Shown here piece by piece: positions 32,814 to 50,837 of a DNA stretch of 64,000 bases. The stretch spans positions 450,853 to 514,852 of the forward strand of contig JAMNXP010000001.1 of NCBI GenBank assembly GCA_023653095.1, read 5' to 3'. The notes beneath the pieces were generated by a model. That model saw nothing but the letters and a program-made list of their open reading frames with translations, was not told the DNA's origin and ran no database searches. The translations under genes and the position numbers were made by a program. Within the stretch, counting starts at the first letter, position 1. Each line of letters starts with the position of its first letter. The stretch is from Bacteroidia bacterium (GTDB lineage: Bacteria; Bacteroidota; Bacteroidia; NS11-12g; UBA955).

Positions 32814-34844
32814 TTATAATGAATTTGTAACAGACAATCGTTTTTCAATGAGTTCTTCACCAGAGCCAGAAATTGCTTCTTCTGCAGATACTCCTATTTT
32901 CTGAGAGATGTTGAATGCATCAAATGCCTCTTTTTCTATATCTGATGGTTTTTCTGATTCTGAGGAAGGCTCTGCAGCAGGTGCAGCAGGTGCAGCAGGT
33001 GTAGAATCGGAAGGCGCAGCAGGGGCTGCTGAACTTTGAGCACTAATTAATGGATTTATAGTAGCCTCGGTTGCTGATTCTACCGCAGGAATGTCTGCGG
33101 CAGCTGGAATAGCTGTTAAAGGCTTTTTTCTACCCCAATTGCTCCAAAACTTTGGTTTGGCCGCTGCAGCTGCTTTCTTTTGACTTGCTTTTGCATCGGC
33201 CGCAGCTTTATCATCGGCGGCTTTGGCATCTAACATTTGTTTTACTTTTCGAACAGCTGCTGTAATTCCTAAAATACCGCCTACTGATTTAAGTGCGTCT
33301 TTTATTCCTCTTGCAACGGAAAATTTGGATTCTGCTTTTGGGTCTCCTGCTTTTTCCCGTTTTTGTTCTAATCGGGTTTGTTTGATTTTTTCTAATTCAG
33401 ATTGAGATTTTTTGATATTGGCATTTTGAGCCCTTTTTTTGTCTCTTAAAGCTTTCTTTTCTTTTTCAGCTTTTTTCCTGCTTTTTCTCCTATTCCACCA
33501 TTTGCTTCCAAACCAACCCGATTCATCCGGTTTATTGGCTTCATCTATTGCTTTATATTCTCCGGATAAATCTTCATACCAATTATCCTTCCGCATTTGG
33601 GCTTTGGCATCACTTGTTTTTTTATTGTCTGACCAACTGCGATATATCTTCGAAGCGGCCATACCACCACCAATAATGCCCCCTGCAATTAACAATGGGA
33701 TTCCCGCCCCGGCAACAGTTCCTACAACAGCTGCTGCAACACCCAATGCACCACCTGTAAATTTCAGTGCTGAAAACAGTCCCCTTTGAATTTTCTTATT
33801 TTTTGCAAACTTATGCCAACTTCTACCTTTGTCCGTTAAGGGTTTAAATCCCCAACCTTTAATCCAATTTGTAGCATCCGTTAAACCAAATTTTAACGCT
33901 TGCGCCGCTGTAAGCCCACCTATTAGTCCACCATAAATATTTGAAGTGGCTAAAAGTCCGGCACTTAGTGCATCATTGGAAACAGTAGCTGCAGCAATTT
34001 TAGTACCACCGCTGATAGTTTGATAAATCCCAGATCTAACCGAGTTTATCCCTGATTCAGCAGTTTCATTACCCAAAGTTACACCTGCTGCGTCCTTCGC
34101 AGTCACCGTTCCATCTGGATTAACCACCTTTTTAGATGCAGCCTTAGATCTTTTAAAGCCATCGGAAATATCCATTATTCCTGTTCCAATCGAAACTGCA
34201 CCCATTGCACCCGTCAAGCCGCCTCCAACAGCGGCGCCAGTTCCTAGTTGACTGGCTGCAGTGTTGTAATCGTGTCCTGTACTCGATGAAAAATCACCCC
34301 AGGTATCCACTTTTAAAGCTTTATTAGCTGAACTCACACCTTCAATACCCGCGCCAAAAGCACTTCCAACTAATTCACTTGCCTTAGAATCACCCGCCGC
34401 CGCCGCAATAGTAGTTCCCCCTAAGGCAGCAGAAGCTAAGCCAGCACCTGCGATTGTTGTTGCTCCCAACTTACCCGTTCCCCGTGCAATTGCATTTGTT
34501 ATCGCTGTTCCACCTGACCGGTTAGCAAATACTTTTCTATTGGGATTTAATGCATTATCATAAAAGTCATTCAGGTCGGGATTAGCTTGACTACCTTCCT
34601 TTGCTTGAGGCTTTTGTTCAGGACTTGCTCCAGCAACTGACATTGTAGTTGCAGACATGGCTGCGGAATCTGAATCTAACTTTGGGTCAGCGCCATCAAT
34701 CGAACCGTCATTTAGTGGAACAGATAATTTAGGTGATGCTTCCGCAGCCGATATTGCCGCACCTTCGCCTACAGGGGCATCAACTTCCGCGCCTTTTAAT
34801 TCTGATTCATCCGTTGTTGCTGCCTGTTGATGTCCTTGTATCAT
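32814..34844 (-). CDS. eCIS-associated glycine-zipper protein B (candidate cargo or accessory)
   Basis: Seen: 676 aa, no known family. Acidic low-complexity N-terminus (1-90), then at least four Gly/Ala-rich hydrophobic stretches (for example AGAGLASAALGGTTIAAAAG, and near 375 GVAAAVVGTVAGAGIPLLIA), a basic region with coiled-coil-like KKAEKEKKALRDKK, the segment SKFSVARGIKDALKSVGG, a Pro/Ala linker and a conserved tail EEAISGSGEELIEKRL. It is a paralogue of the next gene upstream, 85 bp away. No signal peptide. Known: glycine-zipper helices occur in membrane-inserting proteins and toxins. Inference: a membrane-active cargo or a handling partner of the nearby ATPase. Function not established. 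Confidence 0.7.
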   Translation of the reverse strand: MIQGHQQAATTDESELKGAEVDAPVGEGAAISAAEASPKLSVPLNDGSIDGADPKLDSDSAAMSATTMSVAGASPEQKPQAKEGSQANPDLNDFYDNALNPNRKVFANRSGGTAITNAIARGTGKLGATTIAGAGLASAALGGTTIAAAAGDSKASELVGSAFGAGIEGVSSANKALKVDTWGDFSSSTGHDYNTAASQLGTGAAVGGGLTGAMGAVSIGTGIMDISDGFKRSKAASKKVVNPDGTVTAKDAAGVTLGNETAESGINSVRSGIYQTISGGTKIAAATVSNDALSAGLLATSNIYGGLIGGLTAAQALKFGLTDATNWIKGWGFKPLTDKGRSWHKFAKNKKIQRGLFSALKFTGGALGVAAAVVGTVAGAGIPLLIAGGIIGGGMAASKIYRSWSDNKKTSDAKAQMRKDNWYEDLSGEYKAIDEANKPDESGWFGSKWWNRRKSRKKAEKEKKALRDKKRAQNANIKKSQSELEKIKQTRLEQKREKAGDPKAESKFSVARGIKDALKSVGGILGITAAVRKVKQMLDAKAADDKAAADAKASQKKAAAAAKPKFWSNWGRKKPLTAIPAAADIPAVESATEATINPLISAQSSAAPAAPSDSTPAAPAAPAAEPSSESEKPSDIEKEAFDAFNISQKIGVSAEEAISGSGEELIEKRLSVTNSL

Positions 34845-34929
34845 AATTTATTGTTAAATTAAGGCTGATTATTTATTCCTTAAAAATACAATATTAAGAA
34901 AGAACCATTAAAAATTCTCAACAATGATT

Positions 34930-36957
34930 TTACAAAGAATTCGTTACTGACAACCGTTTTTCGATGAGCTCTTCACCAGAACCAGAAATTGCTTCTTCTG
35001 GAGTAACTCCAATTTTCTGAGATACATGAAATGCATCGAATACCTCTTTATCATCGTTTGACGGTTCTGACGGGCTTTTATCTTCAGTAGAGTTCCCTTC
35101 TGCTGGTTTAGCTGTCGCCGAATCTTCAGCAGCAGCCGGTTCAGCAACATCACTCGGAGATGGAACCATTTGTGCTGCAGCGGCAGGTTGTTCGGTTGTA
35201 TTAGGTGCAATTGGCTTGGGTACAGCTGGTACAAGAGCCGGTGAAGTAGTTTTTTTACCCCAATTACTCCAAAAATAGGATTTTTTGCTAGCTGCAGCTT
35301 GCTTTTCAACCGCATTGGCTGCAGCAGCTGCTTTATCCTGATCTTTCTTTTCAAAAGCTTTAGTATCTAACCATTTGTCTACTTTCTCAACTATTTTATT
35401 AATATTTTCACCTGCCGATTTTAATTTGTCCTTAATTCCTCTTGCTACAGAAAATTTCGATTCCACATTTTCATTACCATCTTTATTTTCATTACCAGCT
35501 TTATTTTTATTACCAGCTTTGGCTCTTTTTTGGGCAAGTTGAGTTTCCTTTATTTCTTCTAATTCCTCTGTTGAACCCTTTTTGATTTTATTTTCGTCCG
35601 GTATTTTAGGTTCACCGGATTCTACAGTCTTATTACTTTGATTAAGGAGTCTGCGTGGATCAAACCATTTTTTCTTGTTTTTCTCGGATGTATATTCTTC
35701 ATTATATCTTCCATCAGCCCTCATCTTGGCCTTTGCCGCACTTATTTTTTTATTATTTGAATAGCTCCTATAAAATTTTGCGACACCCATCCCACCGGCA
35801 ATCACAGAACCTGCAAGCAATAATGGTATACCCGCACCTCCAACCGTGCCCAAAACAGCAGCAGCAATGCCCAAACCTGCGCCTACCATTTTTAGGGCAG
35901 ACAATGCCATTCGTTTATTTTTTTTACTATTAACGAATTTATTCCAACTCTTTCCCAAGTCAGAAAGGGGGGTAAATTTTCTGTTTTTCCATTTTCTTTT
36001 TGCCTCCTCAAAAAACATTTTCCCACCCTGATAAAGTGAAACAACAGAACCAACAGCACCAAATCCACCGGCAACACCCAAAGCAGCCGCGCTTCCTGTG
36101 GCTGCAGCGGATATTTTTGAAGCCCCGCTAACCATACTGCCAACGCCTGAAGCTATACTTTGTATACCGTTCCATTTTGATTCAGTGCCCAAAGTGACAC
36201 CGGCAGCATCTCCATTTTTTTGGGCTGCTTTTTCTCGTTTTTTCCCATAGAACCAATCAACTCCCCCTGCAATTGTGGATATGAGGCCTGATCCAGCGGA
36301 AAGTGCACCTCCGATGTATGCTCCCAAACCTAATTTACCAACACCCTTATTGTAATTATGGCCTTTTGAAATTCCTTGATTGCCATTCCAAGCATCAGAA
36401 TTAGCCCATGATCCCACATTCAAAGCATCCTTTCCAGCACTGATACCATCAGTACCTGCGCCGAATGCACTGCTAACTAATTCATTTGCCTTAGAATCAC
36501 CTGCAGCCGCTGCAATATAGGTTCCTGTTGCGGCAGCGCCCCCTGCACCTAGTCCTAAACTACTTATTTTACCAAGGAAATTTATTATTCTTGTGCCAAA
36601 AGACCTATTTGCATTGGCCTCAGCATCAGGATTTATATATTTATTTACAACTTCGGCAACTGCAGGTGTTAATTTTTTAGTTTTTGGTTCTCCCTCAGAA
36701 CTATTTGCATTGGCCTCAGCATCAATTGGAGTGGGATTTGCAGTTTTATCTGCCACTGAACCACCAGCATCACCAACTCCGGCTACCGAAACAGGTTGTT
36801 TTTGTATACCTTTTGCAGCGTTACGGCCAGAACTTATTTCCATAGAACCAAGGGTAATCGCATTAAATTCCTGAGTCGAAGCAAGTCTACTCAACAGTTC
36901 GACTGAATGATCTTGTAAAGCATGTTCTTCTTTTTTTTCATCGTGTACTGCAACCAT
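34930..36957 (-). CDS. eCIS-associated glycine-zipper protein A (paralogue of B)
   Basis: Seen: 675 aa, same plan as protein B: variable N-terminus (1-110), AAAAGDSKANELVSSAFGAG matching B almost exactly, GLISTIAGGVDWFYGKKREK, a long glycine zipper GAGLGIAAAVLGTVGGAG then IPLLLAGSVIAGG, a basic Lys/Asn/Gly-rich hinge with AGNKNKAGNENKDGNEN-type repeats, SKFSVARGIKDKLKSAG, a Pro/Ala-rich linker and the shared C-terminal tail. It starts 4 bp after the stop of the second AAA+ gene, so they are co-transcribed. Inference: substrate or partner of that ATPase. The shared tail following an unlike linker looks like a selected signal. Confidence 0.7.
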   Translation of the reverse strand: MVAVHDEKKEEHALQDHSVELLSRLASTQEFNAITLGSMEISSGRNAAKGIQKQPVSVAGVGDAGGSVADKTANPTPIDAEANANSSEGEPKTKKLTPAVAEVVNKYINPDAEANANRSFGTRIINFLGKISSLGLGAGGAAATGTYIAAAAGDSKANELVSSAFGAGTDGISAGKDALNVGSWANSDAWNGNQGISKGHNYNKGVGKLGLGAYIGGALSAGSGLISTIAGGVDWFYGKKREKAAQKNGDAAGVTLGTESKWNGIQSIASGVGSMVSGASKISAAATGSAAALGVAGGFGAVGSVVSLYQGGKMFFEEAKRKWKNRKFTPLSDLGKSWNKFVNSKKNKRMALSALKMVGAGLGIAAAVLGTVGGAGIPLLLAGSVIAGGMGVAKFYRSYSNNKKISAAKAKMRADGRYNEEYTSEKNKKKWFDPRRLLNQSNKTVESGEPKIPDENKIKKGSTEELEEIKETQLAQKRAKAGNKNKAGNENKDGNENVESKFSVARGIKDKLKSAGENINKIVEKVDKWLDTKAFEKKDQDKAAAAANAVEKQAAASKKSYFWSNWGKKTTSPALVPAVPKPIAPNTTEQPAAAAQMVPSPSDVAEPAAAEDSATAKPAEGNSTEDKSPSEPSNDDKEVFDAFHVSQKIGVTPEEAISGSGEELIEKRLSVTNSL

Positions 36958-36961
36958 TACT

Positions 36962-38278
36962 CTATTTTTTTAATTCCTCCGTAATACATTGTATCAGAAT
37001 CTTTTGGGAAATGACTCCATTGTTATGACCCAAAGCTCTGAGACTTGCTTGCTTTACAATATTAACTATTTGACCACCAACTACTAAATAATCTTTTGCG
37101 ATTTTTTTCAGATCTATGTCAGAATCTAATAAAAGATCAAGATTTAGGGCTTTCTGCCAAAGTTCCAAACGATGAGTGTCATCGGGAGTTTCGAAGTAAA
37201 TCATTTTTTGGAAACGTCTTAAAAATGCTTCGTCTATGGAACTTTTTAAGTTGGTTGCCAATATGACCACACCTGGGTGGTCTTCAATCATTTGAAGTAG
37301 AAATCCCACTTGTTGATTGGCATATTTTTCATTGTTTCCGCCTGAGGTAGTTCGTTTTCCAAACAATGATTCTCCCTCATCAAAGAAAAGAATCCAACGC
37401 TTGTTTCTGGCCTGTTTAAAAAGATTGGCTATGTTCTTTTCGGTTTCGCCAATGTACTTACTTGACAATTGAGAAAGGTCAATTCTGTAAACGTCTAAAC
37501 CGTGTTTCTTCCCCAATAAACCAGCCACTAAAGTCTTTCCAGTGCCCGATGGCCCATAAAACACTGCCTTGTATCCAGGTTTTATTTTCTTCCTCATTGA
37601 CTCGCTAGAAAGTAACTGATTTTCAAATTCGAGCCAATATTGAAGATCTTTGATCTGGTTCAAAACATCCCCCGAAAGAACCAAATCCTCCCAATCCAAA
37701 TTCACCTTCACCAAATTAGCAGGGAAATTTGCGCTGTAATCCGGCTTATTGGCTACACCAGTGGTCAATAGATCGAAAGTATCACGGGTGAGTTGAATTT
37801 TTTGATAGGTAATGGGGAAGTTTTCATTATCAGATACGAACTCTAAAAATTCATTATTGAATAACTTGTGTTCCGGGGAAATGACATCCATGACCGATAA
37901 GCGTTCGTTCAAATCTCCGTTGGTCAAAATGTAAATGGCAGTCTCTCCCGTGGGTATGAAACCCGTTTGATTTCTAATCAAGACACCGCCAAAACGAGCA
38001 TTATCAGGGTGTTTATCTTTAAGAGCACGGATAATAGGTTGAAAAATATCGGGTTTGAGAAAAACTGCGGCAGCAATTAAAAAGACGCCTCGTTCAACCC
38101 CATTCAGGCTCAAATTAGTTACAAAATCAGAGTAATATTCACCAGAAATCAGTACAGGTGGTTGAATGGCACCGTGATGTTCAATTTGATCTTTAAGTTC
38201 ATCTGAAGCCTGGCCCAATTGATAAAGAATGATATTCTCGAGCCACTTTAAGTCGTTATTTAGGGATGTATTATTCAT
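36962..38278 (-). CDS. Second AAA+ ATPase of the eCIS (Pvc15-like)
   Basis: Seen: 438 aa. N-terminal family-specific domain (1-190), then an AAA+ module: Walker A GPSGTGKT (242-249), pore-loop region SSKYIGETEKN, Walker B ILFFDEGE (296-303), sensor 1 VVILATNLK, arginine-finger region FLRRFQ. Walker B has Gly where the first ATPase has Ala. Known: Pvc15/Afp15-type ATPases are needed for assembly or cargo loading of extracellular contractile particles. It overlaps the 1050-aa gene by 8 bp and is followed after 4 bp by glycine-zipper protein A. It is clearly a paralogue, not a copy, of the ATPase at 41428-42756. Confidence 0.9.
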   Translation of the reverse strand: MNNTSLNNDLKWLENIILYQLGQASDELKDQIEHHGAIQPPVLISGEYYSDFVTNLSLNGVERGVFLIAAAVFLKPDIFQPIIRALKDKHPDNARFGGVLIRNQTGFIPTGETAIYILTNGDLNERLSVMDVISPEHKLFNNEFLEFVSDNENFPITYQKIQLTRDTFDLLTTGVANKPDYSANFPANLVKVNLDWEDLVLSGDVLNQIKDLQYWLEFENQLLSSESMRKKIKPGYKAVFYGPSGTGKTLVAGLLGKKHGLDVYRIDLSQLSSKYIGETEKNIANLFKQARNKRWILFFDEGESLFGKRTTSGGNNEKYANQQVGFLLQMIEDHPGVVILATNLKSSIDEAFLRRFQKMIYFETPDDTHRLELWQKALNLDLLLDSDIDLKKIAKDYLVVGGQIVNIVKQASLRALGHNNGVISQKILIQCITEELKK

Positions 38279-41200
38279 CGGAGTCAGGTTCTTTATTTAA
38301 GACGGCTATTTCTTGGTCTGTTCGAATAATTCTTTGCTTTTCATCTAACATAGCTTGATATTTCAATAGAAAATCTGTTTTAACCGTGTCAATGGTTGAT
38401 ATATTATCAGGGTCTAGAATTTCATTTATTTTGTTAGCCACCGCTCCCAATTGACCGTATTCGGAAATATAACGTTGTTTAATATCTTCGAATTGGGCTT
38501 TCTTAGTTCTTAATTGAATTAACTTTTGAGAATAATATTTTATTGCTTTGTCTCGGTCACCCAAGAATCTGGCAATTTTTCGCCGAGGAGGATTTGCCTT
38601 CTTTAGTTCATTTTGATCAATTTTGTTTTGTAAATTTTCAATTTCCCGATATTCTCGTTCAATTTTAGAAGGACTATATTTATTCTCCAATGCTTCATCA
38701 ACCTTTTGCAAGAATCTAGTTTTCTTATTGAGAAGAGTAGGTTTTTCAACACTTGAACCCTCTTCCAAATTTAAATTTTCAACACCCGCATTTAAATCTG
38801 TTCCATCAATAATTGCCTTTAATTCATCATAAGTGGTTGCAAAGTGATTTTCCTCAGTTGAAAATGGAGATTCCTCATTTACAGGTTTCTTTCTTGCGAA
38901 TAATCCCAATCCACCTGTTTTACTGATTTCTTTCTTTGATTTCGACAAAATATATTCACCTTCACCAGAGGTCGTTCCCATATTCCATTCAAAAAGCTTC
39001 TTTTTATATAACTTTTTGTTAATGAATAAAAATCTAGCATTAACCTCTGCACTTCCTTGTAAAATGGCATCGGCGGAATATCCGTAATTCAGTTTTAAAA
39101 CTGACATGGTAAATTTGTCTCCGTCTTTAGTTAGCTGTGAATAATCTAGTTTTGCATCTCCAACAGCCTGCAAGACTCCACTTAAATATACACCTCCTGA
39201 TATCCCTACTAAATAAGGTATACCCGCACCAGCGCCGGCTCCAACTTTCGCCTCAACACTTCCTTTAATTCTTGCACCTGCGAAATAATTTGCTTGACCT
39301 TTTTTAAAGGCAATCCCAGCAGTAAAATCACCTTCAATTTTCCCAATTAATTCAAATGAAGCGAAGACATAAATACCCCCAGGCGGCACAATTGGAAATT
39401 GAAATTCAAATCCCGTCTCCGCAGAAATTGAAGGCAAAGGAGCTTTAACTTTTGCTGAGCCACCAGTTACCTCTGGTTTCCAATTATTTTCTTTAGCAAA
39501 CTCAAGATCTACTTTAACAGTTCCCTCAACTCCAAAAAACTCAGCAGAACCGCCAATACCTATTACCTGAACCTTATAATTTTTAGTGGGACCATGAATT
39601 TTAAACGTGGGAACTGCCACCTTCACACCATCTACAATCTCAAATTCTTCCTTGTCTGACACCGTAATTTCAGCCACATCCCAGTTGAATCTTGGTGTAC
39701 CCTTGGGGTCAAATGAAAAATCTGTAATCTTCCCGCTTCCCGTTCCCAAATGAGGAATATCGTGAACATCAATAGAAGCTTCACCTACCTTCAATGTTCC
39801 GCTCTCATAGTTAATTCCAACCAATTTGAGGTCCACATGTCCTAAAATTCCTTTTGCAGATGCATGTCCGTCTTTGATAGAAAAATGATAGTCTCCATCA
39901 ACGTACGACACTCCCACTGTTCCACCAACCTCAAATCCTTCTAAGTGCAGTCCTAAGCCAACATTGACGTCTAAATTTATCAATGAACCTTTCTTTTCGA
40001 TAAATCCTTTAAAACCATTAATTTTAAAAACATCTGCTATGTTAATTTCGCCATCATAATTCAGTTTGAGTTGTGTAAAATCAAAATCTCCATCATAAAT
40101 GGATAAATTGGTAATTTCACCACCTATTTTATGTCCATAAACTTCCAATTCTAAAACAGCGGAATTCACTATAATCCTATCTCCTGACGTTGCAGCTGCG
40201 ACATCCAAACCTGAAAACGATGCATAGAAATTATTTTTCCCACCAAATTGCAATGACGCATTCAAGTAACCCAAATGCGATTTCATGTTATTAACAATGC
40301 CTCTTTTTTCTTTATCATCACCCGTAAATGGAGCTTTAACAGCATCCTTGACTTGATCTAACAACGAATCACCACCCTCAGGGTGAGCCAAAAGCCATTC
40401 ATCAGCAATACCAATGATTGATTTTGCCTCAGAAATCAACAAAAAAACTCCAACTACATCTGTTTTAAGCGATTGGGTTTTTGTCGTATATTCAGCATAT
40501 TTTTCAACCAGAATTTGATAGGTGCTTTTTTCTCCCGTGAGGGCCTCTTTCACTTTTGCATTTAGTCCAATATTGGCCTCAGGCCGCATGACCAAAGCTT
40601 TCTGGTCTGCATTTACCAACTGAATGATTTGCCTAATGGAAGCTTCTTTTGTTTTATCGTTTTCCGTTTTATTCTCGGGATGCTTGTACAGCCAAGTATT
40701 TGCCAAATCTAAAATCTCCGCCTTCAAGGTGCTTTTTTGATCACTTTCCGGAGGTAACTGCTGGAACTTTTCGACCTTCTTTTGAATTTGGGAGAATGTA
40801 GTATTGAAACCCCAACCGCTTTCACCTTTTAAAATAATTGCATTGGCAGATGTACTTAATTCAGTTTTTTTCTCGGTTTCTTTTTCGGGGGATGCTAATT
40901 CTTTAGATATCTCTATTTCTTTTGCTTCAGCAAAGGACAATACGCCTTTAACTGATTCAAACTTTTCATCTTTTTTATCAGAATGACTGCCTATCCATTC
41001 GTTACACAAAGAGATTAATTTTCGGAGAACAATGCTCTTTCGGTCGTTGTCTGTTGCCTTCTCAAACTCAGCTTGTGCCTTTTCGATACGGGCGAAATTG
41101 GTATCTAAACCAAAAAAACCTTTGAACTTAGCTAGGGTGCTTTTCTCCCCTACCAATTTGGGCATAGATTTTGGGACAACACTTTTATTCTCAGTCATAG

Positions 41201-41423
41201 ACTCTTCTGATTTTTCCTGCGATAATTCAGAAGATTGATCTGACATACTTATAGATTCATCGGGTGATAAAGCTTCCGATTCAGAAGATGTATTGGGTAA
41301 TCTATTTGAAATGGATACCACGTCAGGAGAAGGTACATCAGATTGAATATCAGAAACTTGAGATTTCTTTCCCTCTAAAGAAAGTGTTCCTTGTTGTTCC
41401 AATAAATCATTCTCAGTTCCCAT
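38271..41423 (-). CDS. Large beta-rich eCIS-associated protein with three helical repeats (candidate cargo)
   Basis: Seen: 1050 aa, no known family recognised, no signal peptide. Residues 1-90 are Ser/Glu-rich. Residues about 95-395 hold three repeats of about 100 residues with the motif [ND]xWLxxHPE: NEWIGSHSDK (141), NTWLYKHPEN (242), DEWLLAHPEG (341). About 395-830 is a long beta-strand region alternating with glycine (GGEITNLSIYDGDFDFTQLK, GSVEAKVGAGAGAGIPYLVG). About 880-1050 is charged and coiled-coil-like. The gene sits between two AAA+ genes, 4 bp after the first and overlapping the second by 8 bp. Inference: a particle cargo or cargo-handling protein. No DUF4157 HExxH motif was found. 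Confidence 0.7.
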   Translation of the reverse strand: MGTENDLLEQQGTLSLEGKKSQVSDIQSDVPSPDVVSISNRLPNTSSESEALSPDESISMSDQSSELSQEKSEESMTENKSVVPKSMPKLVGEKSTLAKFKGFFGLDTNFARIEKAQAEFEKATDNDRKSIVLRKLISLCNEWIGSHSDKKDEKFESVKGVLSFAEAKEIEISKELASPEKETEKKTELSTSANAIILKGESGWGFNTTFSQIQKKVEKFQQLPPESDQKSTLKAEILDLANTWLYKHPENKTENDKTKEASIRQIIQLVNADQKALVMRPEANIGLNAKVKEALTGEKSTYQILVEKYAEYTTKTQSLKTDVVGVFLLISEAKSIIGIADEWLLAHPEGGDSLLDQVKDAVKAPFTGDDKEKRGIVNNMKSHLGYLNASLQFGGKNNFYASFSGLDVAAATSGDRIIVNSAVLELEVYGHKIGGEITNLSIYDGDFDFTQLKLNYDGEINIADVFKINGFKGFIEKKGSLINLDVNVGLGLHLEGFEVGGTVGVSYVDGDYHFSIKDGHASAKGILGHVDLKLVGINYESGTLKVGEASIDVHDIPHLGTGSGKITDFSFDPKGTPRFNWDVAEITVSDKEEFEIVDGVKVAVPTFKIHGPTKNYKVQVIGIGGSAEFFGVEGTVKVDLEFAKENNWKPEVTGGSAKVKAPLPSISAETGFEFQFPIVPPGGIYVFASFELIGKIEGDFTAGIAFKKGQANYFAGARIKGSVEAKVGAGAGAGIPYLVGISGGVYLSGVLQAVGDAKLDYSQLTKDGDKFTMSVLKLNYGYSADAILQGSAEVNARFLFINKKLYKKKLFEWNMGTTSGEGEYILSKSKKEISKTGGLGLFARKKPVNEESPFSTEENHFATTYDELKAIIDGTDLNAGVENLNLEEGSSVEKPTLLNKKTRFLQKVDEALENKYSPSKIEREYREIENLQNKIDQNELKKANPPRRKIARFLGDRDKAIKYYSQKLIQLRTKKAQFEDIKQRYISEYGQLGAVANKINEILDPDNISTIDTVKTDFLLKYQAMLDEKQRIIRTDQEIAVLNKEPDSDE

Positions 41424-41427
41424 GATA

Positions 41428-42756
41428 TTAAGACCTCATGTACTTACCTTGTTTTTGAAGTTCCCTTTTTATGGACTTTTCTAGGGATATCGGATCAACT
41501 ACCGTAGACTTTTGTTGCAAACATCTGTATACACATTCCCTAATTACGTTTGCAATCATCCCCCCAGTCAACTCATAGCTTTGACTTAATTTCTTATAAT
41601 CAACATGAAACTCAATGGGAGAATTTGGCAATTTGGTCATACTTGTCCACAATAAAAATCGTTGATCTTCATCGGGAATGGAGAAATTAATGATGTTTTG
41701 AAACCTGCGTGTGAAGGCATCGTCTATGACCGTTTTTAAATTCGTAGCAAGAATTACTATCCCGGAATAATCTTCAATTCGCTGGAGCAAATAACCCACT
41801 TCTTGATTTGAATATTTATCGTTGGATGAATTATTATTTCCTCGTTTGCTGAAAAGTGATTCAGCTTCATCAAAAAAGAGAATCCAATTTTTATTTTCAG
41901 CTTGCCGAAAAACCCTTTCTAAATTCTTGGCCGTCTCTCCAATGTATTTTGAAACCAATTGTGAAACATCTACTTTATAAACATCTATACCTAATTTTTT
42001 TCCGAGTAAAACTGCTGCCATTGTTTTACCAGTGCCTGAGGGCCCATAAAACAGTGCTTTGTAACCAGGTTTGAAGATATTCCCAAATCCCCAATGATTA
42101 TAAACTTGGTCTTTGGTATTCTGCCAAACCTCAATCAAATTCAGTTCATGAATTACCTCATCAGCAAGTATTAAATCTTCCCAATTCGAATTGGTGCTTA
42201 CTAATTTTGCTGGGAATTCGGAATTAAAATCAGGTTTATTTATGGGTTGATTGAGCAGCAGTTCCCTGTAGTCGCCAGAAATATCGACTGTTTTATTGAA
42301 AAAATGACTCTCATCAGATTCGACTTGAATAATTTCATGTTTTAAGAGCCATGATTTACCGTTGAATAGTTCATAAACTAATGTGCGCTCCTCAATGGAA
42401 CCATCTGTGAATAAAAACACTACGGTTTCTATTGTGGGTTTAAAATAATGATTGGAATCTGACTTGCCTCCTAAATTCTTGCGGTCTTGAAATTGCAACT
42501 TGTACTGAAGGAGAAAATCAAGCATTAACGGATAATAGGCATATACAAAACCCAGTAATAATGCCCCTCTTTCGATAGATGAAAACTGGTAATGCTTAAT
42601 TAAATCATGGTAATAATCAAATTCTTGGCTCTCTTTTTCAATGTTATCCCAAGATACATCAACTGGTATTGTATGTCCAGCTGCAAAAAGTTCAACTTTT
42701 TGTTGAATTAGATTTTCTAAATCCAGAAGGTCTTTTTGAAGTTGAGCAGATAACAT
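41428..42756 (-). CDS. First AAA+ ATPase of the eCIS (Pvc15-like)
   Basis: Seen: 442 aa. N-terminal domain (1-185) with FSSIERGALLLGFVYAYY, then AAA+ with Walker A GPSGTGKT (238-245), SKYIGETAKNLERVFRQAE, Walker B ILFFDEAES (292-300), IVILATNLKTVIDDAFTRRFQ with paired Arg (350-351), and a helical lid ending at 442. Known: the conserved ATPase of Pvc/Afp-type systems. It is the first gene of the minus arm, divergent from the particle operon across 124 bp. Context suggests it serves the 1050-aa protein that follows 4 bp later. Confidence 0.9.
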   Translation of the reverse strand: MLSAQLQKDLLDLENLIQQKVELFAAGHTIPVDVSWDNIEKESQEFDYYHDLIKHYQFSSIERGALLLGFVYAYYPLMLDFLLQYKLQFQDRKNLGGKSDSNHYFKPTIETVVFLFTDGSIEERTLVYELFNGKSWLLKHEIIQVESDESHFFNKTVDISGDYRELLLNQPINKPDFNSEFPAKLVSTNSNWEDLILADEVIHELNLIEVWQNTKDQVYNHWGFGNIFKPGYKALFYGPSGTGKTMAAVLLGKKLGIDVYKVDVSQLVSKYIGETAKNLERVFRQAENKNWILFFDEAESLFSKRGNNNSSNDKYSNQEVGYLLQRIEDYSGIVILATNLKTVIDDAFTRRFQNIINFSIPDEDQRFLLWTSMTKLPNSPIEFHVDYKKLSQSYELTGGMIANVIRECVYRCLQQKSTVVDPISLEKSIKRELQKQGKYMRS

Positions 42757-42846
42757 GATTCGAAAATTGGCTGAAACGGCAGCAAATTACAACATTCGAT
42801 GCAAAGAAGTTGATTAGAGAATCGTTTTTTTTACCAATGGTATTAC

Positions 42847-42873
42847 GAATTCAATATGAATTCATTAGGTTTG
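42847..42873 (+). promoter_or_regulatory. Operator-like palindrome and -7 box at the head of the eCIS particle operon
   Basis: A perfect 17-bp dyad, GAATTCA-ATA-TGAATTC (42847-42863), is followed 2 bp later by the exact -7 box TAGGTTTG (42866-42873). The box ends 7 nt before the ATG at 42881. The dyad occupies the place of the -10 to -35 spacer, where a bound repressor would block the promoter. It lies in the 124-bp divergent region and could also act on the minus arm. Confidence 0.5.
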
Positions 42874-42880
42874 CGAATGA

Positions 42881-43243
42881 ATGAATCCAGATAATTTTTT
42901 CAGACAAATGGAATTGCGTACGGAACGCGAACTCTACAGACGGAGTTTCAAAGCCGCTGCTCAAAGCCAAGACGCGATGTTTGAAAAATTCCAAAACAAC
43001 AAAAAAGAAGCCATGAAAAGGGCTGTTGCCAGAGAAGTAAAATGGTTCTTCATCACCTTGTTATTGGCACCCATATTAGCGTTTGGATTTTATTATTTAT
43101 TCGCGCAAATCATTCCAAACACTATCATTGATCTTGCTATATATATGGAGGGTGTTGAAACCGTCTACCTTTTGTTGGCAGTATTTTGCTTTGTTAGCAT
43201 ATATCTAGCTAGAATTGTAATTTGGGCAGTTAAGCGGAGTTAA
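42881..43243 (+). CDS. Small two-TM protein, first gene of the eCIS operon
   Basis: Seen: 120 aa. A charged, helical N-terminal half (LRTERELYRRSFKAAAQ, KKEAMKRAVAREVKW) is followed by two TM helices (about 50-73 and 88-113) with a short acidic loop and a basic C-terminus. No known family. An out-of-frame ATG 4 bp upstream ends after 5 codons. It sits 2 bp before the Pvc16-like gene, so it is in the operon. Inference: could hold the particle or an assembly step at the inner membrane, which is not expected of a freely released eCIS. Confidence 0.7.
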   Translation: MNPDNFFRQMELRTERELYRRSFKAAAQSQDAMFEKFQNNKKEAMKRAVAREVKWFFITLLLAPILAFGFYYLFAQIIPNTIIDLAIYMEGVETVYLLLAVFCFVSIYLARIVIWAVKRS

Positions 43244-43245
43244 TT

Positions 43246-43809
43246 ATGATTTTTGAGGTTGTAAATGCTATAAGCAAAGAGTTAAATCTACACCTCAAAT
43301 ACCAGTTTGGTAGCACTGAAGATTTAGTGATATTTTCAAATATTTTAGATTTAAACGGTGGAAAAGCTTTGCAGCAAGATAATACAGTTCATTGTTTAAT
43401 CTTAAAAATTGAAGAAGATAGAACCCTCAATAAAACCGGAGGTTACAGAGGCCCAAGTGCACCAACTCCAAGCTTGTTTAATGCACACGTGATTTTTGCA
43501 GCAACACATTCAGGCAAGCAATATCCAGAGGGTGTCAATCTGATTTCACGCGTTTTGGAATATTTTGTTCAAAACCAGACATTAGATTCTACAAAAATTG
43601 AAGGTTTACCTGATAGTATTGACAGACTGACTGTAGATTACTTGTCTTTCGAATACAACGAATTGAGCAACGTTTGGAGTACTATAGGCACTAAACTTTT
43701 GCCTTTTGCTGCTTACAAAATTGGATTTATTCCCGTTCAACCCACAAGTTCTCTTGGTTCGAAAATTGAACGCATTTCTGGTTTGGGCACTAATCTTAAT
43801 CAAAAATAG
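43246..43809 (+). CDS. DUF4255 (Pvc16-type) tail-terminator protein
   Basis: Seen: 187 aa matching DUF4255: N-terminal MIFEVVNAISKELNLHLK, NTVHCLILKIEEDRTLNK, FNAHVIFAATHSGKQYPEGV, and LTVDYLSFEYNELSNVWSTIG, which is the most conserved part. Known: Pvc16/Afp16-type proteins cap the sheath-tube end distal to the baseplate and stop tail growth. It is the first structural gene of the operon. Firm family call; role taken from Pvc and Afp particles. Confidence 0.88.
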   Translation: MIFEVVNAISKELNLHLKYQFGSTEDLVIFSNILDLNGGKALQQDNTVHCLILKIEEDRTLNKTGGYRGPSAPTPSLFNAHVIFAATHSGKQYPEGVNLISRVLEYFVQNQTLDSTKIEGLPDSIDRLTVDYLSFEYNELSNVWSTIGTKLLPFAAYKIGFIPVQPTSSLGSKIERISGLGTNLNQK

Positions 43810-43814
43810 TTGGT

Positions 43815-44639
43815 ATGAGAATTGTACCGTGGCTGATTATTGATTCAAAACACCCTTTTTACAAAAGCGGTAAAATGGAGTTTTTGGAAATCTTCCCCAG
43901 CAATTCTTCTCGTGAATGGCTAACAAATCACCGGAATTTCTTTAAATCTGTTGAAGGAAAATTCATCATTTCATGCAGAACCGCAGATCAAATCAATCCC
44001 GAGATTGAATCGCATGAACAACCTTTATCCCTTCATTTTTATCTAGGCACAAAAGACCTCAATTTTAGTTCATTTACAGATTGCTCTGATAAGCCTTTAC
44101 ATTCGCATTCGCTGAATTTAGACATTGATATTCAATCAGATGAAGACAATTATAAAGAGATCAACATTAAAGATGCAAACGTTATTGAAGGGGTAAAACC
44201 TATTTCACTTCCGTCGGGTTATTTTAAAATCGGTGAATTAAAAATTAATGTTCATTCAATTACAAAATTTATAAAAAACAATATTTCAAAGGGTCCCACA
44301 AATATTTTCATAAATGCACATGTAAAATCTTATCAACTCGTTTACGCAATTGACAAGTCTGGAAATCCCGAATTGATGCCAACTGAGATAGTTGAAGAAT
44401 CCGGAATTACGACCTTCAACCAAATTGAAGTGGATAACTCAAGTCATACATTTTTCGCTTCTCAGAATGAAATTGGTATCGATAAATTAAGCCTTCTAGA
44501 GTGTGTACCCTACAGACTACAAGGCAACAATACCAAAATAAAACTCAAGTGCAAGGTCCCCAGATTTGGGATTTTAAACATTTCGAAATCCCCAAGTTAT
44601 CCACATTCACCCATTTTGCTTCAAGAAATAAAATATTAA
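43815..44639 (+). CDS. Unknown protein encoded between tail terminator and sheath
   Basis: Seen: 274 aa, mixed beta-rich, no signal peptide, no TM segment, no motif recognised. Features: N-terminal MRIVPWLIIDSKHPFYKSG, an acidic middle (DIDIQSDEDNYKEINIKD), and a C-terminal half LECVPYRLQGNNTKIKLKC. It starts 5 bp after the Pvc16-like gene and ends 63 bp before the sheath, so it belongs to the operon. By position it could be a particle-end or sheath-associated component specific to this eCIS lineage. No function is claimed. Confidence 0.6.
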   Translation: MRIVPWLIIDSKHPFYKSGKMEFLEIFPSNSSREWLTNHRNFFKSVEGKFIISCRTADQINPEIESHEQPLSLHFYLGTKDLNFSSFTDCSDKPLHSHSLNLDIDIQSDEDNYKEINIKDANVIEGVKPISLPSGYFKIGELKINVHSITKFIKNNISKGPTNIFINAHVKSYQLVYAIDKSGNPELMPTEIVEESGITTFNQIEVDNSSHTFFASQNEIGIDKLSLLECVPYRLQGNNTKIKLKCKVPRFGILNISKSPSYPHSPILLQEIKY

Positions 44640-44644
44640 TTGTA

Positions 44645-44652
44645 TAGATTTG
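44645..44652 (+). promoter_or_regulatory. Candidate internal promoter and A-rich leader of the sheath gene
   Basis: TAGATTTG (44645-44652) matches TAnnTTTG exactly, with a TTTG at 44625-44628 at short 16-nt spacing. A 50-nt leader rich in A (runs of A at 44669-44695) follows. A-rich leaders favour translation in this phylum. The tube gene leader (46580-46610) has a similar A-rich make-up. This fits the need for many sheath and tube copies. Confidence 0.4.
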
Positions 44653-44702
44653 CGTTTTCAGTGCTTTAAAAAAAACAATAAAAACCTAACATTTTAAATA
44701 AT

Positions 44703-46571
44703 ATGGCGAATTACAAAACCCCTGGTGTTTACGTTGAAGAAATCTCCACGTTACCACCTTCAGTCGGACAAGTGCCTACTGCTGTACCTGCGTTTGTGGG
44801 GTACACAGCAAAGGCCATCAAAGGAGGAGCATCGATTCGTAATCAAGCGGTGCACATCTCTTCTATGCTTGATTACGTTGATCATTTTGGAGGTGGATAC
44901 GTACCATCCGAGATTAACGTTTCTTTAAACTCTTCCTTACAAGTTGAAGGAATTAAATTGGACAAATCTTTCTACTTGTACGATGCAATCAGAATGTTTT
45001 TCGCCAATGGTGGTGGAGAGTGTTATGTTGTAAGCGTTGGTGGTTACAATGACGATATTGAATTCGAAGCTTTACAAAATGGTATTGATGCTTGCAAACG
45101 CGAAAATCAACCTACTATTTTGGCTTGTCCTGATGCAGTGTTACTTAGCAAATCAGATCAGTGTTACAGCTTACAGCAACAAATGTTGATGCAGTGTGCT
45201 ATGATGCAAGATCGTGTAGCTGTGTTAGACGTTTACGAAGGTTATATCCACAGAAAAGATAAAGATGTTGTTTTGAACTTTAGAAATGGTGTAGGTGTGA
45301 ATAACTTGAAATACGGTGCTTCATACTACCCATGGGTTTACAACGCATTGCCTCACAAATACAATCACGAAACCATCAAAATCAAAGTTGGTGATGATGA
45401 TAAGCGTTTAGAAGAAATTTGTTCTCACCCTATTTCAGTGAAAAACTTGAATATGGCAGTATCAGATTACGCCAAAGTAAAAGGTTATTCTGACGAAAAA
45501 GATTACAAAACTGCGCTTACTGACATTTTAGACAACATCAACGGTGATGCTGCTGATTACAATGGTGGTGCAAGTTACTTGGCTGGTGAATTGAAGGCAT
45601 TGTACGATTTCGCTACTAGTTTCTTCAACAGCGCTGCTGTTGCAAACGAAATGAGTGTGAAAGTTAATGCTAGCTCCAAGTTTGCTGGATTATTGAAAGA
45701 ATTCGCAAGCTTCGATGCAGCTGCAGGTTCAGGTGCATTTGATGCTGGTGCTTACCCTACTCTTGATTTGGGTGATGCTTCTCCAAACGCTGCCATTGCT
45801 GGTGCTGAGCAAGAGGAAATGAAGAATAAGTTGATGAAAGATATGCTTTACAAGTTGGGTGTTGATTTGAGAAACATCATGGATAGCATTTTGGAAGATG
45901 CAGAATCTATCAAAATCAACTTGGGCAAAATCGCATTTGACTACAACCCATTGTTGCAAAACATTGTTAATGAAATCTACAAAGAATTGTCAAAAATCCC
46001 ACCATCAGGTGCAGTTTGTGGTGTGTATGCCATGGTAGATAACCAACGCGGTGTTTGGAAAGCTCCGGCAAACGTAAGTCTTGCAACTGTTTCTAAGCCT
46101 ATCGTGAAAATTGATGACGCTCAACAAGAAGATTTGAACGTTGACGTAATTGGCGGTAAATCTGTAAACGCTATCAGAAGCTTTACTGGTAAAGGTACTC
46201 TAGTATGGGGTGCTCGTACTTTAGCAGGTAACGATAACGAATGGAGATACATTTCAGTTCGTCGTTTCTTCAACATGGTTGAGGAAAGCATCAGAAACGC
46301 AACAGGTTGGGCAGTATTTGAACCCAATGATGCTTCTACTTGGATCAGAGTTAAGGCAATGATTGAAAACTATTTAACCAATTTGTGGAAAGCGGGTGCT
46401 ATGGCAGGTGCTTCTTCAGATCAGGCTTTCTTTGTGAATATTGGAATGGGAACAACCATGTCTCAAGTTGATATTCTTGAAGGAAGAATGAACGTTGAAA
46501 TTGGTATGGCTGTAGTTCGTCCTGCTGAATTCATTGTGTTGAAATTCTCTCACAAAATGCAAGAGTCTTAA
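44703..46571 (+). CDS. eCIS contractile tail sheath protein
   Basis: Seen: 622 aa. N-terminus ANYKTPGVYVEEISTLPPS and AVPAFVGYTAKA are typical of phage and eCIS sheaths. The C-terminal core starts near residue 432: IPPSGAVCGVYAMVDNQRGV, then WKAPAN, LVWGARTLAGND, RRFFNMVEESI and FEPNDASTWIRVKAMIENYL. Between them lies an Ala-rich helical insertion, about residues 255-425. Known: polymerises around the tube and contracts to drive it. Only one sheath gene is seen, whereas Pvc and Afp particles have several, so this particle may use a single sheath type. Confidence 0.95.
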   Translation: MANYKTPGVYVEEISTLPPSVGQVPTAVPAFVGYTAKAIKGGASIRNQAVHISSMLDYVDHFGGGYVPSEINVSLNSSLQVEGIKLDKSFYLYDAIRMFFANGGGECYVVSVGGYNDDIEFEALQNGIDACKRENQPTILACPDAVLLSKSDQCYSLQQQMLMQCAMMQDRVAVLDVYEGYIHRKDKDVVLNFRNGVGVNNLKYGASYYPWVYNALPHKYNHETIKIKVGDDDKRLEEICSHPISVKNLNMAVSDYAKVKGYSDEKDYKTALTDILDNINGDAADYNGGASYLAGELKALYDFATSFFNSAAVANEMSVKVNASSKFAGLLKEFASFDAAAGSGAFDAGAYPTLDLGDASPNAAIAGAEQEEMKNKLMKDMLYKLGVDLRNIMDSILEDAESIKINLGKIAFDYNPLLQNIVNEIYKELSKIPPSGAVCGVYAMVDNQRGVWKAPANVSLATVSKPIVKIDDAQQEDLNVDVIGGKSVNAIRSFTGKGTLVWGARTLAGNDNEWRYISVRRFFNMVEESIRNATGWAVFEPNDASTWIRVKAMIENYLTNLWKAGAMAGASSDQAFFVNIGMGTTMSQVDILEGRMNVEIGMAVVRPAEFIVLKFSHKMQES

Positions 46572-46610
46572 TTAAATCCTTTGTAAAACTAAAAATTTAA
46601 AAAATAAATC

Positions 46611-47042
46611 ATGGCAAATCCAGATTATCCACTACCAAGGTTTCACTTCCGTGTTACCTTTGACAGCACTGTAATCAATTGCAGCGAAGTAACCGGATTG
46701 AATACCGAACTAGACGTGATAGAATATCGCGATGGTGCAAGTGTTGAATTTAGCACTCAAAAAATGTCAGGACTTAGAAAGTTTGGTGATATTGTAATCA
46801 AAAAAGGTGTTTTCCAAGATCACGTTGAATATTGGGATTGGTACAATGCAGTTCAAATGAACAACCCTGTTCGTAAAACTGTTACCATCGAACTTCTCGA
46901 TGAAACCCACTCTCCTATTATGACTTGGGCTTTGACCAATGCTTGGCCAAAGAAAGTGGAAAACCCAGACTTGAAGTCTGATGCAAGTGAAGTAGCGGTT
47001 GAAACCATCACCCTAGTTCACGAAGGTTTGAGTTTAGCTTAA
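46611..47042 (+). CDS. eCIS inner tube protein (gp19/Pvc1-like)
   Basis: Seen: 143 aa, T4 gp19 tube family: YPLPRFHFRVTFDSTVINC, SEVTGLNTELDVIEYRDGAS, KKGVFQDHVEYWDWY and MTWALTNAWPKKVENPDLKS. Normal length. Known: hexameric rings stack to form the tube that is driven out by the sheath. An A-rich leader lies between the sheath stop and this start. The next gene is a longer tube-fold protein. Firm call. Confidence 0.95.
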   Translation: MANPDYPLPRFHFRVTFDSTVINCSEVTGLNTELDVIEYRDGASVEFSTQKMSGLRKFGDIVIKKGVFQDHVEYWDWYNAVQMNNPVRKTVTIELLDETHSPIMTWALTNAWPKKVENPDLKSDASEVAVETITLVHEGLSLA

Positions 47043-47064
47043 TTTTCATTGATCTAATTCAATA

Positions 47065-47802
47065 ATGTTTCAAAGTCTACCGGTAAATGCGTTTCATTTT
47101 AAGGTAGACTTTATCTTTCCCTTGCCGTCAAAATCCCTCGATGCCCGATTTGAAAGCATCGAGGGAATAGGCAAGTCAATTGTCGCAAAGAAACCAACCG
47201 ATGCAAAAGGGGCTGAAAACACCGTTGCATTGAGTTCTGCAGTTGAACTGCAAAAGGGTGAATTGACCCTGAAAAGAGGGTTAATTCCAGGATCATATTT
47301 GATCGATTGGTTCGAAATGAACATCACCCTCAAAAAACGCATTCCCATACCCATTGTGGTGAGTGCTTTAGACGCTAATCATACTCCCATTTATTCTTGG
47401 TTTTTTTATAACGCCTACCCTATCAGATGGGAAACAGGTGGATTTAATGCCATGTCAGGTAAATACATTACTGAGACCATTGTCATTCAATATGATTGGT
47501 ACAAACAAGTGAATATGCAAACGGGCATATTTAGCGCAGTGGCAAGTGCTGCATTAGGTGCAACCAACTATGTGGCAGATGCTGGATCTAAAGTAACCCA
47601 AGCAGGTGCTCAAGTGGCCAAAAGTGCTGTTGATGGAGCTACTTCTATTGCTAAAACAGCTGTCGCCCCAGCTACAAATGCCATTAAAAAAGGAGTAGAT
47701 ACCGCAACCGATGCAATTCAAGATGGCGCAAATATTGCTTCGAAAAAAATTGAAGAAGGTGTAAAAAATACAAATGATGCCATAGAAGAAGCTTACGAAT
47801 AA
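47065..47802 (+). CDS. Second tube-fold protein (Pvc5-like) with alanine-rich helical tail
   Basis: Seen: 245 aa. Residues 1-150 are a gp19-like tube fold (NAFHFKVDFIFPLPSKS, RFESIEGIGKSI, LKRGLIPGSYLIDWFEM, SWFFYNAYPIRWETGG). Residues about 155-245 form an added tail of amphipathic Ala/Thr/Asp/Lys repeats (AGSKVTQAGAQVAKSAVDGA, TDAIQDGANIASKKIEEGV) of LEA or apolipoprotein style. Known: Pvc5-like proteins join baseplate hub and tube. The tail is not expected in the minimal family and could line the tube lumen or bind cargo. 22 bp after the tube gene. Confidence 0.85.
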   Translation: MFQSLPVNAFHFKVDFIFPLPSKSLDARFESIEGIGKSIVAKKPTDAKGAENTVALSSAVELQKGELTLKRGLIPGSYLIDWFEMNITLKKRIPIPIVVSALDANHTPIYSWFFYNAYPIRWETGGFNAMSGKYITETIVIQYDWYKQVNMQTGIFSAVASAALGATNYVADAGSKVTQAGAQVAKSAVDGATSIAKTAVAPATNAIKKGVDTATDAIQDGANIASKKIEEGVKNTNDAIEEAYE

Positions 47803-47808
47803 TATTTT

Positions 47809-47994
47809 ATGACAGAAATTAAAAAATTGGTTATAAAGGCATCCATTAGATCATCCACAGAAGTTGATCAAACGGGTAATAAACAAATTACTCAGGAACA
47901 ATTATTAGCTGCTCTTGAAGAATTAAAGTTCCAAATGAGCAGTGACATAGACAAACGGATAAACAGTGTATTATCCAAGAAAATGAAAAAGTAA
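47809..47994 (+). CDS. Small DUF5908-type eCIS protein (Pvc6-like)
   Basis: Seen: 61 aa: EIKKLVIKASIRSST near the start, then a helix LLAALEELKFQMSSDID and a Lys-rich end. Size, position between the Pvc5-like and LysM genes, and the E(I/L)(K/R)(K/E)L(V/I)I(K/R) start fit the DUF5908 family, which is constant at this place in Bacteroidetes eCIS loci. Role unknown. 6 bp after the previous gene. Confidence 0.75.
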   Translation: MTEIKKLVIKASIRSSTEVDQTGNKQITQEQLLAALEELKFQMSSDIDKRINSVLSKKMKK

Positions 47995-47999
47995 CTTTG
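47992..47999 (+). promoter_or_regulatory. Candidate internal promoter box before the LysM hub gene
   Basis: TAACTTTG (47992-47999) matches TAnnTTTG exactly, overlaps the stop of the DUF5908-type gene and ends 4 nt before the ATG at 48004. It would give a leaderless transcript starting the baseplate half of the operon. Confidence 0.35.
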
Positions 48000-48003
48000 T
48001 GGT

Positions 48004-48750: not shown

Positions 48751-48756
48751 TGTACC

Positions 48757-50523: not shown

Positions 50524-50537
50524 TAAATTCGCTCATC

Positions 50538-50837
50538 ATGCCACCAGCAGCTAGAGTTACCGATATGCACACTTGCCCAATGCAAACACCTGGAATCGTA
50601 CCCATTCCTCATGTGGGTGGGCCTATTACTGGTCCAGGAGCCCCTACCGTTCTGATTGGAAATATGCCAGCGGCGGTTATGGGAGATATGTGCGTTTGTG
50701 TGGGTCCACCAGACAGCATCGTAAAAGGTTCTGCAACCGTTCTTATCTGTAATAAACCTGCAGCTCGAATGGGTGATACCACTGCACATGGTGGCTCACT
50801 TATGAGTATGTGTCCCACAGTGTTAATTGGAGGTTAA
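50538..50837 (+). CDS. PAAR-repeat spike tip protein (Pvc10-like)
   Basis: Seen: 99 aa: PPAARVTDMHTCPMQTPG, then repeated PTVLIGNMPAAVMGDMCVC, ATVLICNKPAARMGDTTAHG and CPTVLIGG. His and Cys at the metal-binding places (H12, C14, H79, C89 region) are present. Known: a sharp zinc-bound cone at the spike tip. No fused toxin domain. The stop overlaps the next start (TAATG), so it is coupled to the gp25-like gene. Confidence 0.95.
   Translation: MPPAARVTDMHTCPMQTPGIVPIPHVGGPITGPGAPTVLIGNMPAAVMGDMCVCVGPPDSIVKGSATVLICNKPAARMGDTTAHGGSLMSMCPTVLIGG

What the first reader, a model, noticed from the sequence alone, without database searches (positions are those of the whole stretch)
32814..42756. Divergent arm of an eCIS with two different AAA+ ATPases, each linked to its own candidate cargo
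Pvc/Afp-type loci typically carry one Pvc15-like ATPase. Here two paralogues, with clear differences (Walker B DEAE vs DEGE, unlike N-terminal domains), are interleaved with large unknown proteins: ATPase 1, then the 1050-aa beta-rich protein; ATPase 2, then two glycine-zipper proteins. Gaps of 4 bp and an 8-bp overlap show one tightly packed operon. The simplest reading is two ATPase/client modules feeding one particle, which would allow selective loading of two cargo classes. The role as cargo is inference.
Basis: partly seen in the sequence, partly recalled or inferred. Interest (0 to 1): 0.82.

Follow-up and report, generated by a model that had tools for sequence, protein, structure and literature searches.

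The report
Injection particle with two loading motors
A lake bacterium's phage-tail-like injection machine carries two related ATP-driven motor genes where relatives normally carry one, each beside its own candidate cargo, and one motor and its neighbour were lost together in a sister species, which suggests motors dedicated to different cargo.

Summary
An apparently complete extracellular contractile injection system (eCIS) has a divergent five-gene arm: ATP1, p1050, ATP2 and two tandem Gly/Ala-rich paralogues (gaps 4, -8, 4, 85 bp). A second ATPase in the locus is rare: 0 of 80 related loci, and of 35 ATPase-bearing genomes among 324 of the class only the window's shows two side by side. ATP1 and ATP2 are sister clades of an old duplication. 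In 8 lineage loci ATP1 and p1050 are both present (5) or both absent (3); in one genome a ~4.2-kb deletion removed both and left a scar. Distant p1050 kin lie beside single eCIS ATPases, one in an eCIS_core (cargo-marker) protein; a Gly-rich module also occurs in an eCIS_core protein. eCIS_core itself is absent from all 8 lineage genomes. Best reading: a loading ATPase duplicated and specialised, ATP1 for p1050, ATP2 for the Gly-rich proteins. Linkage is shown for ATP1-p1050; loading, selectivity and cargo role are inferred. Corrections: DEAE/DEGE does not separate the paralogues, the N-domains are homologous, and ATP2's neighbour varies.

The parts
41428..42756 (-). ATP1: N-domain plus single AAA+ domain ATPase of the eCIS ATPase family, 442 aa; in this lineage found only with p1050
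   Evidence: PF00004 E 1.4e-27; clade of 5, support 100/99
38271..41423 (-). p1050: candidate cargo; hydrophilic N-terminus, repeated helical units (by eye), strand-rich middle, helical C-terminus (by eye)
   Evidence: No credible Pfam hit; kin in G104, G105, G107, G099 and, remotely, G213 and G226
36962..38278 (-). ATP2: paralogous AAA+ ATPase, 438 aa, present in 8 of 8 lineage loci
   Evidence: PF00004 E 3.2e-26; clade of 7, support 100/99; G099 holds its first 151 residues at a contig end
34930..36957 (-). glyA: Gly/Ala-rich candidate cargo with a conserved C-terminal tail of about 37 residues
   Evidence: alignment A3; relatives in G104, G105, G103, G099
32814..34844 (-). glyB: tandem paralogue of glyA (45% identity), near-identical C-terminal tail
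42757..42880 (.). 124-bp divergent intergenic region between the arm and the eCIS core
   Evidence: sigma-70 scan of the arm at chance level
42881..64000 (+). eCIS structural genes: 120-aa membrane protein, Pvc16_N, p274, sheath, two tubes, CIS_tube/LysM, spike, PAAR, gp25, two large genes in baseplate position, 234-aa protein, CIS_TMP gene that ends 51 bp past the window
   Evidence: no Pfam hit for p274, 51255-54869 and 55803-58334

Best explanation
One eCIS-loading AAA+ ATPase was duplicated in this lineage and the copies specialised. ATP1 forms a two-gene unit with the large protein p1050 and most likely recognises, unfolds and threads it into the particle. ATP2, the copy kept in every locus, does the same for the Gly/Ala-rich proteins (and for another protein family in two genomes), perhaps through their conserved C-terminal tail. 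Shown: the two paralogous clades, the packed gene order, co-presence and one co-deletion of ATP1 with p1050, intact catalytic motifs and strong purifying selection in both ATPases, and remote kinship of both client types to modules in eCIS_core proteins. Inferred: that the ATPases load, that the clients travel in the tube, and that each motor is selective.
For: ATP1 and p1050 both present in G000, G104, G105, G107, G099 and both absent in G102, G103, G062. G103, whose core is 88-100% identical to G099's over seven proteins, lacks 4232 bp and keeps only the 3' 89 bp of p1050 and the 5' 112 bp of ATP1; ATP2, the 179-aa gene, the Gly-rich gene and the core remain. Order ATP1-p1050-ATP2 in 5 of 5 two-ATPase loci. 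Both ATPases keep GPSGTGKT, FFDE, ATN and RRF (motif roles recalled) with dN/dS 0.03-0.05. N-domains diverged most, 24-30% against 48-53% in four genomes. p1050 kin: G213 (1850 aa) abuts that genome's single eCIS ATPase; G226 (1336 aa) carries eCIS_core PF13699 (2.8e-9) and is the third gene after the single ATPase; matches score 95.0 and 57.2 bits against at most 2.9 and 3.5 in 300 shuffles each. The Gly-rich profile matches a G418 protein that has two eCIS_core domains (1.7e-7; 33.3 bits against at most 5.8 in 500 shuffles). p1050's first 50 residues rank 3 of 58 ORFs for hydrophilicity, a trait of eCIS signal peptides (PMC11297309, passages). Pvc15 is an experimentally supported loader (PMC11495950; abstract and sections).
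Against: Neighbouring genes can be lost together without a functional tie, and only one deletion is visible, in a draft genome. p1050-type genes live with a single ATPase in G213 and G226. ATP2's neighbour is not constant. Other signal-peptide traits are not met: p1050 has no aromatic residue in its first 50, and glyA/glyB rank 16 and 23 of 58. Known eCIS signals are N-terminal, so the C-terminal tail as a signal is a guess, and its profile alone finds no convincing match outside the family. The G418 protein lies about 390 kb from that genome's eCIS ATPase. No usable structure, no interaction or particle data.
Confidence: 0.55

Rival explanations
1. ATP1 and ATP2 form one mixed hexamer: ATP1 is an accessory subunit that widens the substrate range of the ATP2 ring, so there is one motor, not two.
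For: AAA domains remain 48-53% identical and share the motor motifs. In this lineage ATP1 is never seen without ATP2.
Against: ATP2 is the only copy in G102, G103 and G062, so its ring does not need ATP1; the mixed ring would still have to explain why ATP1 goes with p1050.
Confidence: 0.2
2. p1050 and the Gly-rich proteins are not cargo but accessory parts (adaptors, collar or cage proteins, membrane factors), and the ATPases assemble or recycle the particle.
For: No toxin or enzyme domain is detected; loci without p1050 exist, so it is optional, as an accessory could be.
Against: Remote kin of both modules lie in eCIS_core proteins, the domain of the tube-lumen cargo Cgo1/Cgo2 of AlgoCIS (PMC8894135, passages). 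Protein evolution is fast (dN/dS 0.13-0.39 against 0.03-0.04 for sheath).
Confidence: 0.15
3. The pairing is an accident of adjacency: an old local duplication with a neighbour gene, no specialisation; both ATPases load everything.
For: One visible deletion; the other absences (G102, G062) may be one or two losses. In G213 and G226 a single ATPase accompanies a p1050-type gene.
Against: Both copies are under strong purifying selection and the split seems older than the ATP2 radiation (AU p 1.8e-5 against nesting), unexpected for a redundant copy.
Confidence: 0.1

Closest known systems
Pvc15 of the Photorhabdus virulence cassette (Cis15/Afp15 homologues)
   Same: AAA+ ATPase accessory gene of the eCIS operon; Pvc15 associates signal-bearing effectors with the particle (PMC11495950, abstract, sections 3.1 and 3.2 and Discussion read).
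   Different: Pvc15 is about 700 aa with N, D1 and D2 domains. Here 438 and 442 aa with an N-domain and one AAA domain, the size class of 80 of 80 relatives (429-524 aa), and two per locus.
AlgoCIS of Algoriphagus machipongonensis with cargo Cgo1 and Cgo2
   Different: Cgo1/Cgo2 carry DUF4157 (eCIS_core); none is found in the 8 lineage genomes.
Bacteroidales injection systems (BIS)
   Same: Bacteroidota eCIS with an FtsH/ATPase gene and a DUF4157 gene in the cluster (PMC7394362, passages).
   Different: DUF4157 cargo and another layout; a second ATPase is not mentioned in the passages seen.
eCIS_core (PF13699, DUF4157) effector family
   Same: Remote kin of both client modules lie in such proteins (G226 1336 aa, G418 1289 aa).
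   Different: The window clients lack the domain itself.

Membership tests
eCIS (extracellular contractile injection system) | Sheath, tubes, CIS_tube/LysM, spike, PAAR, gp25, Pvc16_N, tape measure and ATPase in one cluster | tested here: met
   Pfam hits; the two large genes in baseplate position have no Pfam hit
eCIS (extracellular contractile injection system) | Released, contracting particle | not testable with these tools
   needs purified particles
eCIS ATPase (Cis15/Pvc15 type) | Homology to ATPases of eCIS loci with intact motor motifs | tested here: met
   alignments and tree with 78 rows; 57 of the 80 loci show an eCIS structural gene or tape-measure-like end
Pvc15 proper | N-D1-D2 architecture with degenerate D1 | tested here: not met
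   single AAA domain, 438 and 442 aa; Pvc15 architecture
Pvc15 proper | Selective cargo loading | not testable with these tools
   biochemistry needed
eCIS_core/DUF4157 cargo | PF13699 domain | tested here: not met
   absent from p1050, glyA, glyB and from 8 of 8 lineage genomes, 6 of them at least 90% complete
eCIS cargo with N-terminal signal peptide | Strongly hydrophilic first 50 residues, some aromatics near the start, disorder | tested here: inconclusive
   hydrophilicity: p1050 rank 3, glyA 16, glyB 23 of 58 ORFs; p1050 has no aromatic residue in its first 50; disorder not computed
Glycine-zipper proteins | Pfam glycine-zipper match | tested here: not met
   no family at E 0.1 for glyA/glyB

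The most novel reading that the evidence does not exclude
A single contractile injection particle is fed by two client-dedicated AAA+ motors that arose by duplication of one generalist loader. The motor and its cargo (ATP1-p1050) form a plug-in module that can be deleted as a unit without touching the rest, so cargo choice is set by the ATPase rather than by the particle.
Probability: 0.42. Interest if true: 0.82.

Novelty: new variant of a known kind. Interest (0 to 1): 0.62.

Why it matters
Evans and Waterfield (PMC11495950, Discussion) leave open whether the key to cargo choice lies in the signal peptide, in the ATPase of the operon, or in both. A locus with two diverged ATPases, two unlike clients and one particle, plus a sister genome that lost one ATPase-client pair, is a natural experiment for that question. 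It also points to client families without the eCIS_core domain, a marker that effector searches use (PMC8213781 and PMC11297309, passages).

Tried and rejected
Walker-B DEAE/DEGE as a mark of the two paralogues: rejected. ATP1 nested with the ATP2 of five genus members: rejected by AU test, p 1.8e-5, but the alternative was named after the first tree was seen and the ATP1 branches are long. p1050 or the Gly-rich proteins as known families: no credible hit in Pfam, NCBIfam, PHROGs or PDB sequences. Viral contigs as a source of p1050 or Gly-rich kin: none. p1050 in phage records: none. A plasmid search with the G226 protein found only places over its first 172 residues, mostly annotated DUF4157. 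Two searches with an alignment that included G226 and G213 added only matches to the first ~200 model positions, which I take for the G226 eCIS_core part. A fold of p1050 residues 380-845 from one sequence gave mean pLDDT 36 and was not used for fold searches. The Gly-zipper-like 415-aa protein of G226 as kin of glyA: not supported (-0.4 bits). The 154-179-aa proteins as one family: a profile of the three genus members finds G226's weakly (E 0.0012) and G062's not (E 2.3). The C-terminal-tail profile finds nothing convincing outside the family. Promoter and terminator scans of the arm are at chance.
Full report
What is there. The window lies in a 2.04-Mb draft genome (75% complete). From 42881 rightwards runs an apparently complete eCIS core; its tape-measure gene ends 51 bp past the window. 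To the left, divergently, run five genes with almost no spacing: ATP1, p1050, ATP2, glyA, glyB. By eye, the genes right of the tape measure do not look like eCIS cargo, so the left arm holds the likely cargo.

How unusual are two ATPases. In 80 of 80 one member of the family is found, in 0 of 80 a second over 100 bits. Of the 80, 60 have at least 9 kb on both sides, 57 show an eCIS structural gene or a tape-measure-like C-terminus, 47 both; L060 and L073 are G062 and G102. In 324 genomes of the class (E 1e-70; at most 5 candidates scored per genome) 35 have the ATPase and 10 of these have two or more. In 9 of the 10 the listed copies lie on different contigs or 775 kb apart; only the window's genome has them side by side. 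In the order, 10 of 108 genomes carry CIS_tube and all 10 carry the ATPase at E 1e-30 (an eleventh match, in G006, is a fragment in a 180-aa frame).

Lineage comparison. Eight genomes (G000, G099, G102-G105, G107, G062) share the 120-aa gene and this ATPase type. ATP2 is in 8 of 8 (in G099 only its first 151 residues, at a contig end). ATP1 is in 5 of 8 and p1050 in the same 5, always in the order ATP1-p1050-ATP2. After ATP2 stands a Gly-rich gene in G000 (two copies), G104 and G105; a 179-aa gene and then the Gly-rich gene in G103; a 588-aa (G102) or 633-aa (G062) protein that the Gly-rich profile does not match. In G099 the 179-aa and Gly-rich genes are on another contig; in G107 the contig ends.

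The co-deletion. G099 and G103 are close (sheath 99%, tube 100%, p274 88%, Gly-rich 84%, ATP2 fragment 96%). Between ATP2 and the 120-aa gene G103 has 351 bp that hold, at 92% identity to G099, the last 89 bp of p1050 and the first 112 bp of ATP1; 4232 bp of G099 are absent between them. So G103's ancestor had both genes and lost most of both, while ATP2, its neighbours and the core stayed; one deletion is the simplest account. It is one event in a draft genome, adjacency alone makes co-loss of neighbours likely, and the absences in G102 and G062 may be one or two further losses.

Trees. With 92 rows ATP1 (5) and ATP2 (7) are clades (SH-aLRT 98-99) and sisters (98). A careful tree of 28 chosen rows gives 100/99 for each and 99/98 for the pair; grouping ATP1 with the ATP2 of five genus members, leaving G102 and G062 outside, is rejected (AU p 1.8e-5). 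I named that alternative after the first tree and ATP1 branches are long, so a duplication before the ATP2 radiation is likely rather than certain.

Sequence. Both ATPases keep the motor motifs (their roles are recalled). N-domains differ more (24-30% in four genomes) than AAA domains (48-53%). dN/dS: ATPases 0.030-0.053, sheath 0.031 and 0.036, p1050 0.128 and 0.203, the 179-aa gene 0.147, p274 0.171, Gly-rich 0.301-0.388 (dS is 1.3-1.6 in the G000/G104 pairs other than sheath). Across six Gly-rich proteins 13 of the 38 invariant columns fall in the last 35 residues, so the C-terminal tail is the most conserved part; that it is a recognition signal is a guess.

Links to cargo. A profile of five p1050 proteins, run on 395 genomes of the class, matched the window's and two others. 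In G213 an 1850-aa gene matches over 352 positions (6.6e-25) and abuts, convergently, the genome's only eCIS ATPase at E 1e-40. In G226 a 1336-aa gene matches the helical unit (6.4e-7) and the strand-rich region (1e-14), begins with an eCIS_core domain (2.8e-9; DUF4157 plasmid hits), and is the third gene after the single ATPase, behind a 415-aa protein with a sub-threshold Gly-zipper match and a 174-aa protein. Residue shuffles score at most 3.5 bits against 57.2 (G226) and 2.9 against 95.0 (G213). The 415- and 1336-aa proteins share an N-terminal DNRPEA motif, but the 415-aa protein is not kin of glyA by profile (-0.4 bits), so G226 shows a p1050-type client and another Gly-rich protein with one ATPase, not the same pair. 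The seven p1050-type genes found here all lie within three genes of an eCIS ATPase. A profile of the Gly-rich proteins, run on 395 genomes, matched one further genome, G418, in a 1289-aa protein with two eCIS_core domains (1.7e-7), with 33.3 bits against at most 5.8 in 500 shuffles; the match is in the Gly/Ala-rich middle, the tail does not match significantly, and the gene is about 390 kb from that genome's eCIS ATPase. eCIS_core is in 0 of the 8 lineage genomes, 6 of them at least 90% complete, and in G060, G011, G226 and G418 but not G213. So this lineage seems to use clients of such modules without the usual marker domain.

Mechanism. Pvc15 work shows that an eCIS ATPase associates signal-bearing effectors with the particle (PMC11495950; outline with abstract, sections 3.1 and 3.2 and Discussion). 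By analogy one ATPase once served all clients; after duplication ATP1 came to go with p1050 and ATP2 kept the rest. This explains why in these loci ATP1 is not found without p1050 or ATP2, why ATP2 is in every locus with changing neighbours, and why the pair can vanish while the core stays. It is not proof of selectivity: a mixed hexamer, or adjacency without specialisation, remain open.

Print. In the held library I found no report of two ATPases in one eCIS locus: search listings (20 of 53 papers listed), and passages of PMC8894135, PMC8213781, PMC12210884, PMC7394362 and PMC11297309. The dbeCIS paper itself was not read, and subscription papers are mostly not held.

Verdict. A real and, in what was sampled, rare gene arrangement, with good evidence for one motor-client unit and suggestive evidence for the other: a new variant of a known machine, worth testing because it separates ATPase choice from particle choice.

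Noticed in passing
window 42881-43243: A 120-aa protein, hydrophilic then by eye with two membrane spans and a basic tail, opens the structural genes in 8 of 8 lineage loci (58-97% identity to the window's); it could be a holin-like release factor or a membrane anchor.
   Followed up: partly
window 43815-44639: p274, between Pvc16 and sheath, evolves faster than its neighbours (65% identity to G104 against 92% and 97%; dN/dS 0.17) and has no Pfam hit.
   Followed up: partly
L050 6391-6930, L054 9875-10414, L049 3896-4405, L055 8263-8727, L151 14140-14664: Small proteins (154-179 aa) beside eCIS clients, one faintly YbjN-like (E 0.028); possibly client chaperones. The three genus members and G226's may be kin, G062's is not supported. 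None in the window.
   Followed up: partly
L051 13315-15081 and L055 8739-10640: Another protein family (588 and 633 aa) stands next to ATP2 in G102 and G062; its C-termini also look alike.
   Followed up: partly
L055 12134-16818: In G062 other genes (one looks like alanyl-tRNA synthetase, by eye) lie between the ATPase arm and the eCIS core.
   Followed up: no
genomes G276, G295, G331, G405: Four or five eCIS-type ATPases on separate contigs of one genome, so probably several eCIS loci.
   Followed up: no
L011 11584-16019 (right of the window): A 1015-aa gene with a P-loop and WD40-like end (by eye) overlaps a 468-aa gene; may be a conflict system.
   Followed up: no
window 54928-55632: A 234-aa protein with a GSVGIG...LDVNG pattern that I recall from tail fibres; possible receptor-binding part.
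   Followed up: no
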